Virus record (IMG/VR): IMGVR_UViG_3300044641_003963
Location: 1-36,192 of that record
Reading direction: 5' to 3' (one strand)
Source: a virus
Length of the DNA stretch: 36,192 bases
This document shows positions 127 to 6,327 of the stretch, piece after piece (the stretch's first letter is position 1; every line of letters starts with the position of its first letter). The notes under the pieces are model-generated. The model did no database searches and had not been told where the DNA came from. It saw only the letters and a program-made list of their open reading frames with translations. The position numbers and the translations under genes were made by a program.

Positions 127-693
127 GTCTTTGGCCGGGGCCTTGGTAACTTTGCGGGTCGCGTCGTTGATGTACTTTTGCGCTTTGGCGATTTGCTCGG
201 GGGTTAGTTGGGGGCGCTCGGGTTGCTCGGGATTTGCCTTGCGGTGGGCGGCTTGAGCGCGGTTCAGTAGGAGGACACGCTTTGACTGTTCGGGTTTAAC
301 GAGGTTCAGGATTTCCGCCGGGAACGGCATACGGTTGCCCCAGGTCCAAGACGCCTTAACCCGGCTAATGGCTAGGGTCAGAAGGTCACCCGGCAGCTTG
401 CCTAGCTGTTCGAGATAGATCGCTTGCGCCGTCTCCGGGTCTTGGCACGGTATCCCGAAGGCTTGGGCGAATTGAATGAGGTCTTTCATCGCTAGCACAT
501 AGTCGCGGGGGCTGGCCGGGGCCATCTGCGCCGATAACCTCGAAATCACCGTCGATAGTTGATCCTTCGTCGCCGGGGCCGGTTCCGTCGCCTCCCATTT
601 TTCCAAAGCCGAGAGCGTTTGCAAGTCCTGCGTAGTGGGCGGCGGCAATGTCCTGACCGCTTGGCGCGACGTTGGTTTTAGTGCGGTTGTCAT
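28..693 (-). CDS. Putative helicase-loader-like replication protein
   Basis: This encodes 221 aa, starting at an ATG preceded by a strong ribosome binding site (TGGAGGGG, 699-706). An in-frame start further upstream (744) lacks such a site. The middle contains a pattern (residues about 105-133) of alternating alanine, leucine and isoleucine followed by F-P-A-E-I-L, which resembles the 'ai...kFfPtpaEil' region of phage DnaB-loader proteins of the lambda P and G39P type. The C-terminal half is charged, rich in lysine, glutamate and proline, and probably helical or disordered. It lies directly downstream of the initiator-like gene, the usual O-P order, and overlaps it by 308 bp in another frame. 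The function is inferred from weak sequence pattern plus position; a generic replication accessory protein is the alternative. Confidence 0.6.
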   Translation of the reverse strand: MTTALKPTSRQAVRTLPPPTTQDLQTLSALEKWEATEPAPATKDQLSTVISRLSAQMAPASPRDYVLAMKDLIQFAQAFGIPCQDPETAQAIYLEQLGKLPGDLLTLAISRVKASWTWGNRMPFPAEILNLVKPEQSKRVLLLNRAQAAHRKANPEQPERPQLTPEQIAKAQKYINDATRKVTKAPAKDPEDMTPEQAARQLEKDRLEFNKALLVAVSGEN

Positions 694-1378
694 AAAACCC
701 CTCCAAAAGTCGGGTGAATGATTTTTCTTGAAGCATGAAGTCAAAGTCGGCTTTCCAGCCCCGGTCGTTTTTACCGGCGCAGAAGTCCGAAGCCCGGAGT
801 TTGGCTAGCGCTGCTTCCCACCCCGTCACCCCGCCACAGTCCGAAAGGCGTTTGGCAAGCTTGGCCCGTCTTGCGGTCGAAAGCCGCTGGCAAGGGGGGA
901 TGCCTATTTGTTGGGCGATAGCGTTGTAGGCGTCAACGGCAAGTGTCTCGGGTTTGCTTACTTCCTGCTTATTTGCCCGCGCTTCCGCTTCTAAAACCAC
1001 CTCCCCCTTTAGGGGGTATCTTTCTGTATCTGTACTATATGCCTCTGTCTCTGGTCTAGCATCGGCTATCGTTTGCTTGCCTTTGCTATCATCTGCTAGC
1101 GGATTTACGAGAAAACCGCATTTTATCAAGTCGTTAAGTTTTGGCTCATAGTCTAAATACGCCACCCGCTTAATGTACGCGGGATTGTTCGGAACCTTAC
1201 CGTCAGCCTTAGCGGCTATGACCATGCAAACGACCGCTAGCAGTTTGCTAGCATCGGATAGCATCACCCAATCTTGGCTAGATAAAATCTCGACATGGAG
1301 CTTAATCCACGGAGGGTTGCGGTCGCGGTAGTGCTGGTGCTTCCGCCAATTTTTAATCTCAAAATAGTCTGGTGGCAT
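386..1378 (-). CDS. Phage replication initiator-like protein
   Basis: This encodes 330 aa. The chosen ATG (1376-1378) follows an AAGAGG ribosome binding site; an in-frame start 34 codons upstream has none and adds a low-complexity tail. The first ~75 residues (M-P-P-D-Y-F-E-I-K-N-W onward) resemble the N-terminal winged-helix region of phage replication organisers, with a hydrophobic core around 'KLLAVVCMVIAA'. Residues about 165-240 form a second helical domain with a W-K-A-D-F-D-F-M-L-Q pattern typical of the C-terminal part of such proteins. By analogy it would bind the phage origin and recruit the helicase loader. The last ~100 codons are glycine- and proline-rich and overlap the next gene out of frame. 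A near-consensus promoter lies 140-170 bases upstream. Confidence 0.72.
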   Translation of the reverse strand: MPPDYFEIKNWRKHQHYRDRNPPWIKLHVEILSSQDWVMLSDASKLLAVVCMVIAAKADGKVPNNPAYIKRVAYLDYEPKLNDLIKCGFLVNPLADDSKGKQTIADARPETEAYSTDTERYPLKGEVVLEAEARANKQEVSKPETLAVDAYNAIAQQIGIPPCQRLSTARRAKLAKRLSDCGGVTGWEAALAKLRASDFCAGKNDRGWKADFDFMLQEKSFTRLLEGFYDNRTKTNVAPSGQDIAAAHYAGLANALGFGKMGGDGTGPGDEGSTIDGDFEVIGADGPGQPPRLCASDERPHSIRPSLRDTVPRPGDGASDLSRTARQAAG

Positions 1379-1674: not shown

Positions 1675-1803
1675 CTATTCCTTCACACAGATGAAATTCA
1701 GTCCGTTCCTACGCGCGCCATGATGGGCGGTTAAGCGCCAGCATATCCAGCCTTGGGCGTGGTAGGCGGCTACGTCAGATTCGCGGGCGTAGATGATGAT
1801 CAC
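1675..1803 (-). CDS. 42-aa protein translationally coupled to the methyltransferase
   Basis: The GTG start overlaps the methyltransferase TGA in a GTGA junction, with a GAGG ribosome binding site 5 bases before it. The protein begins M-I-I-I-Y-A-R-E-S-D-V and ends F-I-C-V-K-E. The middle is rich in tryptophan, histidine and arginine (G-W-I-C-W-R-L-T-A-H-H-G-A-R-R). The strand-helix-strand look and the basic centre would suit a small nucleic-acid-binding or ferredoxin-like fold, but no family is recognised. The open frame extends further upstream inside the methyltransferase, but the coupled GTG is the only well-placed start. Confidence 0.55.
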   Translation of the reverse strand: MIIIYARESDVAAYHAQGWICWRLTAHHGARRNGLNFICVKE

Positions 1804-2684
1804 GATACCCTCGACAGCAAATCCTTGGCGTCGGCTTCCGCCGTTTCCATGTTGCGGATTGCCTGTTTGAAATAGGACGGCTTCAACTCCACCCCCATGC
1901 CATACCGACCAGCACAAACAGCGGTATGGACTTCGCTACCGATCCCGGCAAACGGGGTGAATACGATATCGCGGGGATTACTCCACAGGTCGATACAACG
2001 CCGGATCACGCCGAGCTGTAGTGGGGCAATGTGCCGCTCGTCGTTATTGTCCCGGCCCGCACGATATTGCAGCGTATCGCTCGGGTTAATATCCATCCAA
2101 ACAGGGGATGCGTATTTCTGCCAGACTTGGACCGGGAAACTCTCGTTAGTGTGGGAGATGGGTTCGGGGTTTTCTCCGGGCTTGCGAAGCGTCACAACGT
2201 AGTCCGCGATGCCCTGACGTGACAGGGCGCTGTCCTTCTTGATCTGTTTATGCAGCAACCCAATGGCCTTTGTGCGCTGCATGGCGGTTACGGGGTCTTT
2301 CCAGATTGTGACCCTCGAATGATAGATAAACCCTTCCTTTTCAGCGGCGCGGATTAGATCGCCGGGAAAGTCTGATAAACCAATAACGCCGTCCCGCACT
2401 TTGCTGGTAGGCAAGTCCATGCAGTGCATAGACATAAGGCGTCCAGGCTTTAGGATGCGGGACAACTCACGCAGGGCATATTGGAAATGATCAAAAAACT
2501 CCCCCGCGTTTTTGCAGTTGCCCATATCGCGGTCGGAATTGCTGTAAGTGTATAGCGACGCAAACGGCGGCGAAAATACCGAGTAATGCACCGACGCGTC
2601 AGGCAACCCCGCCATGACTTCTACGCAATCGCCGTTGTAGATAATCCAATCTTTGCCTTCGGATTGGTCTAATACGTTGCTCAT
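1800..2684 (-). CDS. DNA methyltransferase (N4-cytosine/N6-adenine, SPPF type)
   Basis: This encodes 294 aa. The catalytic motif IV is S-P-P-F at residues 38-41, following the N-G-D-C-V-E-V-M segment (17-24) that usually precedes it. The AdoMet-binding motif I is T-P-F-A-G-I-G-S at 243-250, and a G-V-E-L motif lies about 12 residues further on. Motif IV before motif I is the beta-class order of exocyclic amino methyltransferases. S-P-P-[YF] is more usual for N4-cytosine enzymes than D-P-P-Y, but target base and site cannot be read from sequence. The start overlaps the helicase stop in an ATGA junction. No restriction endonuclease partner is adjacent. A likely role is protection of phage DNA or regulation through methylation; this is inferred. 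Confidence 0.88.
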   Translation of the reverse strand: MSNVLDQSEGKDWIIYNGDCVEVMAGLPDASVHYSVFSPPFASLYTYSNSDRDMGNCKNAGEFFDHFQYALRELSRILKPGRLMSMHCMDLPTSKVRDGVIGLSDFPGDLIRAAEKEGFIYHSRVTIWKDPVTAMQRTKAIGLLHKQIKKDSALSRQGIADYVVTLRKPGENPEPISHTNESFPVQVWQKYASPVWMDINPSDTLQYRAGRDNNDERHIAPLQLGVIRRCIDLWSNPRDIVFTPFAGIGSEVHTAVCAGRYGMGVELKPSYFKQAIRNMETAEADAKDLLSRVS

Positions 2685-4069
2685 GCTGCCCCCATAAATG
2701 CTGGAATTTTGATCTGTTTAGCTGGATTGTAGTCTGCTTTCTCACGCTCCTGGCCGCGTATTTCCGCGCGGTTTAGATCGGCCATATGCGCTATCATGCT
2801 CTCGGCCATGCGTTCGGCGTCGGCTTCTTTGCGGCGTAGGTTTGCTACCACCGCGCCTTCAATCTCCGACGCGATAAAGTGAACATCAACCGGTTGCGTC
2901 TGCCCGAAGCGCCAGAACCTCCGGACGGATTGAAAGACCTGCTCAAAGCTATCGTTAAGCCCGACGAATACGGTATTCCGGCAATGCTGCCAATTTAGGC
3001 CAAACCCGCAGATCGAAGGCTTTGTGACCAGAACCCTCAACCGGCCTGACGCGAAGTCGTCTAGGATTTTTTCCTTTTTCTCTTGGCTATCAGATCCCCG
3101 CAATTGAACCGCGCCGGGGATGGTCTTTTCTAGAGCATCACTTTCGCTATTGAGATTGCACCAGCACACCCACGGTTTATCATTCCCGTTTACTAATTCG
3201 GATGCAGCCTCTACGCGGTCGTCAACAGTTGAACGTCGCGCGCTAATGCGTTCCGCAAGTGTCTGAGCCTCGATGGGGAATAGAAACCCCGTATCAATAT
3301 CCGCTTTGTATTCGACGGCCACAGAGTGCTGATGGGTTCTGAGGGGTGGCAGATCAAATCCGCCGTTCTCATATCCCAAGTCCGAAGGCTTGCGGAGCAT
3401 GACAGCCCAGGAACACATCCACTTCCAAAATTCGGATTCGGCGTGGCCCTTAAGCCTCCATTTCTGCGTATCTCCCCCGTCATGGACAAAGAACATGGCG
3501 AGCATTTCGACATAGGACATAACCCCCAAGAACTCAGCGTGGTTGCCCAATTCCATGAAGTCGTTAGGTGCCGGGGTCGCGGTCGCGGCAAGCCGAAACG
3601 GAACGGCCTGGCAATCCTCGATCAGCTGGGTTCGGGTCTTACCATCGTATGATTTAAGGATGCTGCTTTCGTCCAGAACCACGCCGATAAACTTGGACAG
3701 GTCAAAGTTATGCAGCTTCTCGTAGTTGGTTACGGTAATACCCGGCGTTACCTCTGACTGACTGATGCACTTCCGAATGGTGATGCCAAACTTCTCTCCC
3801 TCTTTTGCCATTTGTGCGGCCACCGCAAGCGGGGTGATAATAAGAACATCACCACCCGCCTCGGTGTGGATCGCATGCGCCCATGACAACTCCATGAGAG
3901 ACTTGCCCAGGCCGGTCCCGGCAAACACTGCGGACCGGCCACGACGCAACGCCCATGACACGATATCGCGCTGAAACGGAAACAGCTTATCATTCAGCGG
4001 CGGGATTGTTTTAAGCCCCGTAGGCTTGTCGATCAGCTTCTTGCGGTTTAGGTAGTGGGCGTATTCCAT
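2681..4069 (-). CDS. SNF2-type superfamily 2 helicase/translocase
   Basis: This encodes 462 aa. Walker A is G-T-G-L-G-K-S at 51-57, the Walker B-like box is D-E-S-S at 133-136, and motif III (T-A-T-P) is at 163-166. Near the C-terminus is the 'VRRFWRFGQTQPV' segment, matching the SNF2 arginine-finger motif VI (R-x-x-R-x-G-Q). It is a compact ATP-dependent dsDNA translocase without obvious accessory domains. It overlaps the DnaA-domain gene by 22 bp and the methyltransferase by 4 bp, so the three are co-translated. Pairs of SNF2 helicase and methyltransferase are frequent in temperate-type phages; their role is not established. A GGGAAG element precedes the ATG. Confidence 0.88.
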   Translation of the reverse strand: MEYAHYLNRKKLIDKPTGLKTIPPLNDKLFPFQRDIVSWALRRGRSAVFAGTGLGKSLMELSWAHAIHTEAGGDVLIITPLAVAAQMAKEGEKFGITIRKCISQSEVTPGITVTNYEKLHNFDLSKFIGVVLDESSILKSYDGKTRTQLIEDCQAVPFRLAATATPAPNDFMELGNHAEFLGVMSYVEMLAMFFVHDGGDTQKWRLKGHAESEFWKWMCSWAVMLRKPSDLGYENGGFDLPPLRTHQHSVAVEYKADIDTGFLFPIEAQTLAERISARRSTVDDRVEAASELVNGNDKPWVCWCNLNSESDALEKTIPGAVQLRGSDSQEKKEKILDDFASGRLRVLVTKPSICGFGLNWQHCRNTVFVGLNDSFEQVFQSVRRFWRFGQTQPVDVHFIASEIEGAVVANLRRKEADAERMAESMIAHMADLNRAEIRGQEREKADYNPAKQIKIPAFMGAA

Positions 4070-4374
4070 TCTTCTTCCCCAATTCTCTCTTTGTGTTTGT
4101 TTATGCCGTGAGCAACGGTCGTATGATGGCGCTTGCCGAGATATTTCCCGATCTCTGTTAGGGTGTGATGCGTTTCACAGTCCGCGCGGTACATAAAATG
4201 GTGCCGGGCTTTGACGTATTGGGCGCTGCGCCGGTCGCTCAATAAATGCTTTAGTGTGATCTGGTGTTGGGTGCAGATATCGCGGGCAATCTCTTGCAAG
4301 CTAATATAATTGGCGTTCCTGAATATCTCGGGGATATTCTTGCGCCCTGGTTCACCCCATGCAACCCCGATCAT
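4048..4374 (-). CDS. Stand-alone DnaA domain IV (DnaA-box-binding) protein
   Basis: This encodes 108 aa from the ATG that overlaps the upstream TGA (ATGA). A GTG nine codons earlier is possible. Residues about 30-95 match the DnaA C-terminal domain: the D-R-R-S-A-Q-Y-V-K-A-R-H segment aligns with the conserved basic region, and L-T-E-I-G-K-Y-L-G-K-R-H-H-T-T-V with the DnaA signature helix-turn-helix (eIG..fG.RdHtTV). There is no AAA+ ATPase domain; full-length DnaA is about 450-500 aa. It may bind DnaA boxes on host or phage DNA and so compete with or mimic host DnaA. The start at a 4-bp overlap indicates coupling in the operon. Confidence 0.82.
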   Translation of the reverse strand: MIGVAWGEPGRKNIPEIFRNANYISLQEIARDICTQHQITLKHLLSDRRSAQYVKARHHFMYRADCETHHTLTEIGKYLGKRHHTTVAHGINKHKERIGEEEWNTPTT

Positions 4375-4739
4375 ATCTGCACACACATAGCAGCGGCGCA
4401 CCCAATCACCGAGTTTTGCAAATAGCGTGCGGGTTTTCCTGACCGTGGTGCGTCTGCGCTGATCTTGCGGGCTTCTTCTCTCGTAACGTCCTCAAACCGC
4501 AACCCCATTATCACCATCATGGGAGGTTTAGCCTGAAACTTTCGCGCTTCTCTAGCGGCTTTGAGTGCAGACTTGTCAGCCTTGGCTCTCATGCGTAACG
4601 GCTGCACCCCGTTTCTAAGTAGGAACTCCCTAATAGCCTCATGCGATGCGCCCAGGTCGTATGCAATGTCAGTTATCGGCATTTCCTTCGCCAACAATAA
4701 CGCACGCTGTCTTGTCTCTGGTGTCCATTTAAACGGCAT
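4371..4739 (-). CDS. Small helix-turn-helix protein
   Basis: This encodes 122 aa with a strong ribosome binding site (AAGGGGGA) that overlaps the end of the upstream 38-aa gene. Residues 3-45 (W-T-P-E-T-R... I-T-D-I-A-Y-D-L-G-A-S-H-E-A-I) form an HTH of the kind found in small phage regulators. The tryptophan-threonine start and the I-A-x-x-L-G turn loosely recall the N-terminus of GcrA, but the C-terminal half is not the GcrA C-terminal domain. That half is basic and then ends in a hydrophobic, cysteine-containing tail. It probably acts as a DNA-binding regulator. The GcrA comparison is only a visual resemblance. Confidence 0.6.
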   Translation of the reverse strand: MPFKWTPETRQRALLLAKEMPITDIAYDLGASHEAIREFLLRNGVQPLRMRAKADKSALKAAREARKFQAKPPMMVIMGLRFEDVTREEARKISADAPRSGKPARYLQNSVIGCAAAMCVQI

Positions 4740-4741
4740 AG

Positions 4742-4858
4742 TTAATCCCCCTTAGGTCCAATGAAATAAACTGTAGCCCACGCGGCGAGTGTAAAAACGA
4801 TGATGAGAGTGCCGATAGTCCCGCCGGGCGTGAAATGGTCTAGGTAGTCTTGGATCAT
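4742..4858 (-). CDS. 38-aa single-span membrane protein
   Basis: The ATG overlaps the upstream TGA (ATGA) and is preceded by GGAG 7 bases away. The protein begins M-I-Q-D-Y-L-D-H-F and has one clear transmembrane segment (about residues 13-33: G-T-I-G-T-L-I-I-V-F-T-L-A-A-W-A-T-V-Y-F-I). It ends G-P-K-G-D. Its stop lies inside the ribosome binding site region of the HTH gene, so it is fully embedded in the operon. The family and function are unknown; small membrane proteins of this kind can act in superinfection exclusion or host-membrane interference. Confidence 0.6.
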   Translation of the reverse strand: MIQDYLDHFTPGGTIGTLIIVFTLAAWATVYFIGPKGD

Positions 4859-5049
4859 ATCGGCGCTCCGTAAATCTGATCTGTTTCCACCCTCTCAACC
4901 CGTTCCGCTTCTACATCAGCCTTAATAACCTCTAGGGCGGATTGTGAGAGGGCTTTTGACTTTCTGGCACGCTCGCCCTTAGCTGCTATGCGGTATTGCT
5001 CCCTAGCATTCATATAGGCTGTGTGGGCGGCTATCTGGCGGGGGGTCAT
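4855..5049 (-). CDS. Small hypothetical early protein
   Basis: This encodes 64 aa and is highly charged. An arginine- and alanine-rich helical N-terminus (M-T-P-R-Q-I-A-A-H-T-A-Y-M-N-A) is followed by K-G-E-R-A-R-K-S-K-A and an acidic stretch. The sequence looks like one long amphipathic helix. It starts in an ATGA overlap with the nuclease gene and ends in an ATGA overlap with the small membrane gene. No family is recognised. Confidence 0.65.
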   Translation of the reverse strand: MTPRQIAAHTAYMNAREQYRIAAKGERARKSKALSQSALEVIKADVEAERVERVETDQIYGAPI

Positions 5050-5426
5050 GCTACGGCCTCCAAAACTTCATCCAGAGACGTACAAACGTGAACCTCAAAG
5101 CCCAACACTCTCAGCGTTGAGTGGCAAATAAGCTGGGCATCTGATACAATTCCCTTGGGCGTTTTGAGTTCGATAAACACGACGCGGCCCGGCTTGATGG
5201 CTTGCAGATCGGGAAACCCGACGACTAGCCCCCGGCTTTTCATGATCGACATTTGCCGCGCGGTGCATTTGATCCCGTTGGCGCTCGCGCTCACGAACCA
5301 TCCAAGGTCACGCAACGCAGTCACGCAACGGCGCTGCAAATCGCCCTCGCTTTCGTCCGCGAAATACTTGCCAAGCGTTTTACGGGCTTCCGCTGCGGTC
5401 ATGTTTGATGGCATTTCGAGGGTCAC
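5046..5426 (-). CDS. VRR-NUC domain nuclease
   Basis: This encodes 126 aa if the GTG at 5426 is used. Internal ATGs at 5414 and 5402 are alternatives, and none of the three has a clear ribosome binding site. Residues 65-125 carry the PD-(D/E)xK core of the VRR-NUC family: G-F-P-D with catalytic Asp at 73, then V-F-I-E-L-K with Glu 86 and Lys 88. After this comes a helix with conserved-looking Q and L residues and a final V-H-V-C strand. Stand-alone phage VRR-NUC proteins are taken to cut branched or flapped DNA, fitting a role in replication or recombination intermediates. Its operon neighbours are the GapR-like protein upstream and small proteins downstream. Confidence 0.85.
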   Translation of the reverse strand: MTLEMPSNMTAAEARKTLGKYFADESEGDLQRRCVTALRDLGWFVSASANGIKCTARQMSIMKSRGLVVGFPDLQAIKPGRVVFIELKTPKGIVSDAQLICHSTLRVLGFEVHVCTSLDEVLEAVA

Positions 5427-5428
5427 GA

Positions 5429-5722
5429 TTAGGCAACCGTTTTCAGCGCAGCTTGGCCGAGGGGTGCGGTGGCAAAGTCGCCCAAGGCGTTTGTGTAAGC
5501 CTCCACAAGCGCGTCACGCTCCGCACGTTCGGCAGCGTCTAGCTTACGGTCGGCAATGACGCGGCGCATGATCTTGGTATCAAAACCTTCACTCTTGGCT
5601 TGTTTGAATACCTCAGCAATGTCCTCAGAAATCGCGGCCTTTTCATCGTTTAGCTTTTCGATGCGGGCAATAAACCGCGCAAGCGATTGATCCCCAATGC
5701 TGTTGTGTCCTATGTCGCTCAT
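5429..5722 (-). CDS. GapR-like (DUF2312) nucleoid-associated protein
   Basis: This encodes 97 aa. The sequence matches the DUF2312 pattern: an N-terminal helix with L-x-x-F-I-A-R-I-E-K-L-N-D-E-K-A-A-I, an acidic helix (S-E-D-I-A-E-V-F-K-Q-A-K), then G-F-D-T-K-I-M-R-R-V-I and a final helical hairpin. In Caulobacter, GapR forms rings around overtwisted DNA and supports topoisomerase action and replication. The family is essentially confined to alphaproteobacteria and their mobile elements. The protein has a normal length with an added alanine-rich tail (residues ~85-97). It may act on phage or host DNA topology during replication; this is inferred. The start is in an ATGA overlap with the gene upstream. 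Confidence 0.88.
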   Translation of the reverse strand: MSDIGHNSIGDQSLARFIARIEKLNDEKAAISEDIAEVFKQAKSEGFDTKIMRRVIADRKLDAAERAERDALVEAYTNALGDFATAPLGQAALKTVA

Positions 5723-5889
5723 GCTTCAACCTTTCTCGCTGGTAATTTCTTAATCTCGTTCCGCATCAGCCATTCGGCCTTTGCTTTTTCTTTCGCCTCA
5801 ACGTCACTTTTGCTGTCGGGCGGCGTTCTGAGTTTTGTGGAGAAGTCTAAGCAATGCCATTTTTTGTGTGGTGGATGGTGGCGGTTCAT
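5719..5889 (-). CDS. Small basic hypothetical protein, first gene of the left operon
   Basis: This encodes 56 aa from ATG 5889. A GTG 9 codons upstream would lie inside the terminator T-tract and is unlikely. The N-terminus holds a histidine cluster (M-N-R-H-H-P-P-H-K-K-W-H-C) and the remainder is a lysine-, alanine- and glutamate-rich helix ending L-P-A-R-K-V-E-A. It ends in an ATGA overlap with the GapR-like gene. It directly follows an intrinsic terminator hairpin, so its expression depends on read-through. No family is recognised. Confidence 0.55.
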   Translation of the reverse strand: MNRHHPPHKKWHCLDFSTKLRTPPDSKSDVEAKEKAKAEWLMRNEIKKLPARKVEA

Positions 5890-5900
5890 GGGTTCTCGGG

Positions 5901-5934
5901 GAAAAAGACCCCCCACGCCGTTAAGCGTGAGGGG
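5901..5934 (-). terminator. Intrinsic terminator or attenuator before the GapR operon
   Basis: On the minus strand a 10-bp stem (CCCCTCACGC with GCGTGGGGGG, one G-T wobble) and a 6-base loop TTAACG are followed by TCTTTTT. The wobble pairs only in the minus-strand RNA; on the plus strand it would be a C-A mismatch. That supports leftward use. It lies 11 bases before the start of the first operon gene, so transcripts from the switch region must read through it. Confidence 0.75.
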
Positions 5935-6123: not shown

Positions 6124-6327
6124 TCATTTCTGACACCCCTTTTCAAAATCAGCTTCCGTTATGCCCAAACGCTTAGAGCGTGCGGCCTGTAAGACCTCGG
6201 GCCAACGCCAGCGGGGGATTTTTTCTGTGATGCCCCAATACTGCACAACGGTGCGGTTTTTGTGGCCCAAAAGACGGGAGAGGGCTGTAACACCCCCTAG
6301 CTTTGCGATGATTTCAGCGTGTTTCAT
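6124..6327 (-). CDS. Small HTH regulator (Cro/carph-isopro type)
   Basis: This encodes 67 aa: M-K-H-A-E-I-I-A-K-L-G-G-V-T-A-L-S-R-L-L-G, then R-T-V-V-Q-Y-W, then I-P-R-W-R-W-P-E-V-L-Q-A-A. This is the compact HTH of small Cro-like phage regulators, frequent in alphaproteobacterial prophages (the 'carph-isopro' group). It would bind the dyad in the adjacent switch region and control both directions. The ATG has no ribosome binding site at normal spacing. A -10-like element ends 6 bases before it, so the message may be leaderless. A short protein like this has no cleavable CI-type C-terminal domain. Confidence 0.78.
   Translation of the reverse strand: MKHAEIIAKLGGVTALSRLLGHKNRTVVQYWGITEKIPRWRWPEVLQAARSKRLGITEADFEKGCQK

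What the first reader, a model, noticed from the sequence alone, without database searches (positions are those of the whole stretch)
4048..5722. Phage operon carrying mimics of host cell-cycle and chromosome proteins
One overlapping operon encodes a GapR-like nucleoid protein, a stand-alone DnaA domain IV and an HTH protein whose start recalls GcrA. It continues into a DNA methyltransferase. DnaA, GcrA, the methyltransferase CcrM and GapR are all parts of alphaproteobacterial replication and cell-cycle control. The combination suggests the phage takes over or blocks host replication initiation and chromosome topology. The GcrA likeness is weak and the methyltransferase is SPPF type rather than the D-P-P-Y of CcrM.
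Basis: partly seen in the sequence, partly recalled or inferred. Interest (0 to 1): 0.7.

Follow-up and report, generated by a model that had tools for sequence, protein, structure and literature searches.

The report
Phage replication operon with GapR and DnaA-domain
A phage, probably infecting alphaproteobacteria, carries in its early replication operon a copy of the host DNA-twist protein GapR and the DNA-binding end of the host replication starter DnaA; the same pairing recurs, in the same gene order, in very different phages, so it is a real inherited unit and not a chance mixture.

Summary
The core observation holds. Window 5722-4048 (-) encodes a clear GapR protein (PF10073, 1.8e-26) and a stand-alone DnaA domain IV (PF08299, 4.1e-17); the operon runs on into a helicase, a methyltransferase and an O/DnaD-like replication protein. 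The GcrA likeness is rejected by profile, PDB sequence and fold searches. The gene set is conserved: GapR-VRR-dIV-Rep in a complete circular phage (MW202613), GapR-VRR-dIV-MT-A70 in L152; in L170 and L142 GapR is followed directly by a full-length phage DnaA and a methyltransferase. GapR and dIV lie close together on one strand more often than random placement gives (P=0.0002), whereas none of 80 host dnaA loci has GapR within 6 kb. Best reading: early replication module of an alphaproteobacterial phage, GapR probably managing positive supercoils. Host replication block is possible but unproven: three base-contacting residues of the DnaA domain are changed (P423T, D433H, L438A), and no DnaA-box cluster was found. 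GANTC, the CcrM site, is depleted sevenfold (12 vs 84.7), consistent with a CcrM host; the window methyltransferase is not CcrM-like. New variant of a known kind.

The parts
6124..6327 (-). Cro-like repressor candidate, first gene of the minus-strand early operon
   Evidence: phrog_8008 DNA-binding 9.5e-6; P22_Cro 0.0053 and YdaS 0.0024, both below cut-off
5719..5916 (-). 65-aa ORF of unknown function overlapping the GapR start
   Evidence: ORF; no Pfam/PHROG match
5429..5722 (-). GapR-like (DUF2312/PF10073) DNA-binding protein, 97 aa
   Evidence: PF10073 1.8e-26; PDB GapR 6e-18; DNA-contact residues K56, K59 (as R), K66 and structural R65, E28 kept
5046..5426 (-). VRR-NUC nuclease / Holliday junction resolvase-like
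   Evidence: PF08774 4.8e-7; phrog_93 endonuclease 2.7e-15
4855..5049 (-). 64-aa ORF, unknown
   Evidence: ORF; no confident family
4742..4858 (-). possible 38-aa single-TM peptide (MIQDYLDHFTPGGTIGTLIIVFTLAAWATVYFIGPKGD)
   Evidence: read from the sequence; overlaps the stop of the 64-aa ORF; not tested further
4371..4739 (-). small HTH protein, 122 aa; not GcrA
   Evidence: no GcrA match; AlphaFold helices 7-16, 22-29, 33-42 at pLDDT ~90; no close viral relative
4048..4374 (-). stand-alone DnaA domain IV (Bac_DnaA_C), 108 aa, RHHTTV instead of RDHTTV
   Evidence: PF08299 4.1e-17; 1j1v alignment; residue survey
2681..4069 (-). DEAD/SNF2-type helicase
   Evidence: phrog_62 DNA helicase 1.8e-66; 55-63% identical viral relatives
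1800..2684 (-). N6/N4 DNA methyltransferase, SPPF motif
   Evidence: PF01555 1.9e-16; phrog_67 3.1e-39; 309 phage records with relatives
386..1378 (-). O/DnaD-like replication initiation protein / helicase loader (start inferred; frame open to 1480)
   Evidence: phrog_345 'replication initiation O-like' 1.2e-17

Best explanation
The genes form the early, lambda-pR-like DNA-replication operon of a podo-like, probably alphaproteobacterial phage, with the order [Cro-like]-GapR-VRR nuclease-HTH-DnaA domain IV-helicase-methyltransferase-Rep. Shown: family assignments, operon layout, and recurrence of GapR + DnaA(-dIV) + VRR + MTase in other phages. Inferred: GapR encircles overtwisted DNA ahead of phage forks and transcription and helps type II topoisomerases remove positive supercoils. 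The DnaA domain, without an AAA+ domain, cannot be an initiator by itself; it is a sequence-specific DNA-binding part re-used at phage sites (origin or early promoters), in the slot that other phages fill with full-length DnaA, while Rep does the helicase loading. Its target is probably not the classical DnaA box.
For: Gene order conserved: GapR-VRR-dIV-replisome organizer, all overlapping or adjacent, in the complete circular MW202613; GapR-VRR-dIV-MT-A70 in L152 and GapR-VRR-dIV in L005; GapR-full-length DnaA-fused helicase/MTase in L170 and GapR-DnaA-MT-A70 in L142, whose contigs carry phage tail genes, L170 also a terminase; isolated Rhizobium phage RHph_N28_2 has S24 repressor, GapR, MTases, DUF1376 and dIV in one stretch. 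dIV sits within 60 bp of helicase/MTase, VRR or GapR in many loci. Adjacency beats random placement, P=0.0002. 0/80 host dnaA loci have GapR within 6 kb, so the pairing is a phage feature. GapR keeps K56, K59 (as R), R65, K66.
Against: No DnaA-box cluster or clear iterons mark a phage origin: boxes are scattered (14 with one mismatch; decoy mean 5.5, P 0.018), there is no dense 300-bp cluster in the window or relatives, and the repeats in the Rep gene are not above chance genome-wide. Most GapR loci lack a detectable dIV (81/100) and most dIV loci lack GapR (61/80), so the parts also work apart. No expression or biochemical data.
Confidence: 0.52

Rival explanations
1. Host replication interference: the free DnaA domain IV occupies DnaA boxes at host oriC as a competitor without AAA+ domain and blocks initiation; phage GapR redistributes host GapR/topoisomerase activity.
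For: A domain IV without AAA+ is in principle a competitor; R399, R407, R432, H434, T435, H439 are kept. Precedents of phage attack on DnaA: lambda P and YfdQRST (PMC4776307). No oriC-like cluster on the phages that would otherwise explain DnaA.
Against: Base-contacting residues P423, D433 and L438 are changed to T, H and A; H at 433 is in only 4 of 112 phage domains, the rest nearly all keep D. The gene is embedded with Rep, helicase and MTase genes. Other phages carry full-length DnaA with AAA+ domain in the same place, which would favour rather than block initiation.
Confidence: 0.22
2. Early-gene transcription regulators: dIV and the small HTH protein are ordinary DNA-binding regulators of the phage early operon, like many HTH remnants, and GapR acts as a structuring or late-transcription factor as proposed for T4 DsbA.
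For: DnaA is a known transcription factor through domain IV (established knowledge); the dIV family in phages is very divergent, down to sub-threshold copies; T4 DsbA is reported as a GapR homologue linked to late promoters (PMC7824862).
Against: Does not explain the recurring association with VRR nuclease, MTase and Rep genes or the exchange with full-length DnaA.
Confidence: 0.2
3. No functional link: GapR, dIV, VRR and MTase are common accessory genes of alphaproteobacterial phages that meet by mosaic shuffling in the early region.
For: Each part also occurs without the others; GapR is in 149 of 50,697 phage records; helicase-MTase relatives lack GapR in 12/12.
Against: Adjacency beyond random placement (P=0.0002) and the same order with overlapping stops and starts in unrelated phages.
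Confidence: 0.15

Closest known systems
GapR (Caulobacter CCNA_03428; PF10073/DUF2312)
   Same: Whole domain; residues E28, K34, K49, K56, R65, K66 and basic 59 kept; 97 aa
   Different: Phage-encoded; K42 is A; N-terminal MSDIGHNS start common to phage versions; no function tested in phages. One paper (PMC12185513) reports GapR in an Erythrobacter phage as a first, although phage records already carry DUF2312 annotations.
DnaA domain IV (E. coli 1j1v; PF08299)
   Same: Complete domain IV with R399, R407, R432, H434, T435, H439
   Different: No domains I-III; P423T, D433H, L438A
Sinorhizobium phage phiLM21
   Same: Inducible temperate alphaproteobacterial phage with a MTase (p027) and a stand-alone DnaA-C protein (p033, PF08299 43 bits) in the replication region
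   Different: No GapR; p027 is GANTC-specific (PMC5537653) and unrelated in sequence to the MT-A70 MTases of L142/L152; the window MTase is N6_N4 with SPPF
EBPR podovirus 1 / Synechococcus phage S-CBS3 helicase-MTase pair
   Same: MTase 59-60% identical; in EBPR podovirus 1 a Cro-near early operon with helicase followed by the MTase
   Different: EBPR podovirus 1 has no GapR and no DnaA domain; these two families were not searched in S-CBS3
Lambda P, E. coli CPS-53 YfdR (phage factors acting on DnaA)
   Same: Phage early proteins touching replication initiation (PMC4776307)
   Different: They bind DnaA; they are not DnaA-derived DNA-binding domains

Membership tests
GapR (PF10073) | Profile match over the whole GapR domain above cut-off | tested here: met
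   92 bits vs 22.6, residues 12-81 on profile 3-72 of 72
GapR (PF10073) | Conserved helix-2 basic residues contacting DNA (K56, K59, K66) and R65-E28 pair | tested here: met
   K50, R53, K60, R59, E22 in the window protein by the 6jyk alignment with residues from PMC7373187
GapR (PF10073) | Tetrameric ring binding overtwisted DNA | not testable with these tools
   needs biochemistry
DnaA initiator | Domain IV HTH | tested here: met
   PF08299 62.4 bits
DnaA initiator | AAA+ domain III and domain I | tested here: not met
   no Bac_DnaA or DnaA_N match; 108-117 aa
DnaA initiator | Conserved base-contact residues 399, 423, 432-435, 438-439 | tested here: inconclusive
   5 of 8 kept (R399, R432, H434, T435, H439), 3 changed
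GcrA (PF07750) | GcrA profile match | tested here: not met
   no match at E<=1 for the protein nor six-frame at E<=0.1, while one other viral contig does match
CcrM | CcrM-class MTase with D-P-P-Y | tested here: not met
   27.4 bits vs cut-off 830; motif SPPF
CcrM | GANTC specificity | not testable with these tools
   needs a methylome; GANTC is avoided in the window
VRR-NUC | PF08774 match above cut-off | tested here: met
   30.3 bits vs 23.8

The most novel reading that the evidence does not exclude
Alphaproteobacterial phages share a widespread GapR-VRR-DnaA(or DnaA domain IV)-methyltransferase cassette: a portable copy of the host's replication-control set that lets the phage run or re-time replication independently of the host cell cycle, with DnaA repeatedly captured from hosts and in many lineages, including this one, reduced to its DNA-binding domain with changed specificity.
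Probability: 0.3. Interest if true: 0.8.

Novelty: new variant of a known kind. Interest (0 to 1): 0.58.

Why it matters
GapR is a chromosome-structuring protein important for replication in alphaproteobacteria, and DnaA is the near-universal bacterial initiator. A phage unit that joins both with a DNA methyltransferase and a replication protein would give a small, testable system for asking why topology control is coupled to initiation, and how phages of hosts with strict cell-cycle control replicate outside the permitted window. I found no paper in the library that describes the linkage; the searches returned single parts only.

Tried and rejected
GcrA identity. A close-relative search for the HTH protein gave nothing. 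Phage oriC made of DnaA boxes: no cluster. Iterons in the Rep gene: three 13-mers at 1056, 1086 and 1248, but ten matches genome-wide against 7.4 expected. CcrM-like MTase: rejected. Link of the L142/L152 MT-A70 enzymes to the proven GANTC enzyme of phiLM21: no sequence similarity. Prophage copies of the GapR-DnaA pair in named genomes through the L170 DnaA query: the 80 loci returned had no GapR nearby and look chromosomal, useful as a control. Tree of full-length phage DnaAs: at least five label changes, eight of 15 in one long-branched group beside Xanthobacteraceae, but long-branch warnings forbid conclusions. Defence-system reading: PADLOC gives only generic MTase and weak helicase matches.
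Full report
What is there. The window is an IMG/VR virus record, 36,192 bases, with a podo-type head and packaging set (portal phrog_156 and major head protein phrog_283; large terminase related to many podo-like phages). On the minus strand a tight operon starts after a Cro-like gene (6124-6327) and runs through a 65-aa ORF, GapR (5722-5429), a VRR-NUC nuclease (5426-5046), a 64-aa ORF, a probable 38-aa membrane peptide, a small HTH protein (4739-4371), a stand-alone DnaA domain IV (4374-4048), a helicase (4069-2681), a methyltransferase (2684-1800) and an O/DnaD-like replication protein. Stops and starts overlap at several junctions (ATGA). In the other direction lie an ERF annealing protein and SSB. 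The layout is that of a lambdoid early region; no integrase was looked for specifically, so a temperate life style is inferred, not shown.

Checking the parts. GapR is unmistakable and keeps the residues shown to bind DNA in Caulobacter (K56, K59 as R, K66, with R65 and E28; PMC7373187). The DnaA piece is a complete domain IV and nothing else. Of the eight E. coli positions listed as making base-specific contacts (399, 423, 432-435, 438-439; PMC5043019) five are kept and three changed (P423T, D433H, L438A; alignment). Among 112 phage domains collected here 105 have D at 433 and only 4 have H (part of the set was fetched with a pattern that allows only D or H there). GcrA is not supported by any test. 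The methyltransferase belongs to a helicase-MTase pair found in phages of many hosts, so it is no sign of CcrM.

Conservation. Two sets of viral loci were fetched, one by GapR (100 loci used) and one by the DnaA domain (80 loci). After clustering, 31 of 35 pairs are on the same strand and 11 lie within 500 bp, against 2.9 expected if GapR were placed at random (P=0.0002). Gene order repeats: GapR-VRR-dIV in L005; GapR-VRR-dIV-MT-A70 in L152; GapR-VRR-dIV-replisome organizer in the complete circular MW202613; GapR-VRR-MTase without dIV in L074, L076 and L078. In L170 and L142 the gene after GapR is a full-length DnaA (DnaA_N, AAA+, domain IV), followed directly by a helicase-MTase fusion or an MT-A70 MTase; both contigs carry phage tail genes, L170 also a terminase. 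So the stand-alone domain of the window occupies the slot of a full phage DnaA. As a control, 80 cellular dnaA loci contain no GapR within 6 kb. Isolated phages show the same pieces: Rhizobium phage RHph_N28_2 has GapR, two MTases, DUF1376 and a DnaA-domain protein downstream of an S24 repressor; Sinorhizobium phage phiLM21 has a GANTC MTase and a stand-alone DnaA domain but no GapR. The linkage is not universal: 12 of 15 GapR phages tested from the phage collection have no domain IV, and 12 of 12 helicase relatives have no GapR.

How it most likely works. The neighbours of GapR and of the domain are replication genes, and the domain is exchanged with full DnaA; the simplest reading is a phage replication module in which GapR manages positive supercoils and the DnaA-derived domain marks phage DNA for Rep or regulates the early operon. 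Against a simple DnaA-box origin: the boxes are few, imperfect and scattered, with no cluster in the window or in the relatives with full DnaA (for the relatives only the fetched stretches were scanned). Host interference is therefore a serious rival, weakened but not excluded by the changed contact residues.

Host signal. Among all sixteen XYNY'X' palindromes, only GANTC is strongly depleted in the window: 12 found, 84.7 expected; the other fifteen lie between 0.77 and 1.36. GANTC is the CcrM site of alphaproteobacteria. This supports an alphaproteobacterial host and suggests that GANTC is costly for the phage and that its own MTase does not simply supply GANTC methylation (inference; a HinfI-like restriction enzyme would leave the same trace). 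In the other loci pooled ratios are 0.45-0.86, so such strong avoidance is not a general property of GapR phages.

What is known. GapR in phages is known as DUF2312 in records and was described in an Erythrobacter phage (PMC12185513); T4 DsbA is proposed as a GapR relative (PMC7824862). CcrM-like MTases in replication modules of alphaproteobacterial phages are known (PMC5537653). I found no description of the GapR-DnaA linkage. I rate it a new variant of a known kind: known parts, a conserved combination not described as far as I could search.

Limits. Everything rests on sequence; HMMs for the survey were built here and may miss diverged copies; viral contigs may be incomplete; the co-occurrence counts are not corrected for host taxonomy, although the adjacency test and the host-locus control are less affected by it.

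Noticed in passing
window, whole: GANTC is depleted sevenfold (12 vs 84.7 expected), the only strongly depleted 5-base palindrome of its type.
   Followed up: partly
L170 6510-8291 and L142 6585-8366: Full-length DnaA genes (domains I, III, IV) in phage contigs directly after GapR, 37 and 13 bp apart.
   Followed up: partly
L214 (Zymomonas CP006891 9254-9732); L125 7669-8216: Two GapR/DUF2312 genes side by side: annotated tandem genes in the Zymomonas plasmid record, possible in L125.
   Followed up: no
L031 (G007, 8993-9211 of contig 3300032286_002092): A real GcrA-family domain (PF07750, 41 bits) in a 448-residue open frame of a GapR-carrying viral contig.
   Followed up: no
window 4742-4858 (-): Possible 38-aa single-transmembrane peptide gene inside the operon.
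   Followed up: no
L043 7646-7999, L038 9772-10083: Very diverged DnaA-domain-IV-like small proteins just after the same helicase-MTase pair (HHTS, DHTS motifs), below the Pfam cut-off.
   Followed up: partly
window 1056-1260: Three 13-base repeats CTAGCATCGGCTA in the Rep gene; matches are not above chance genome-wide.
   Followed up: yes
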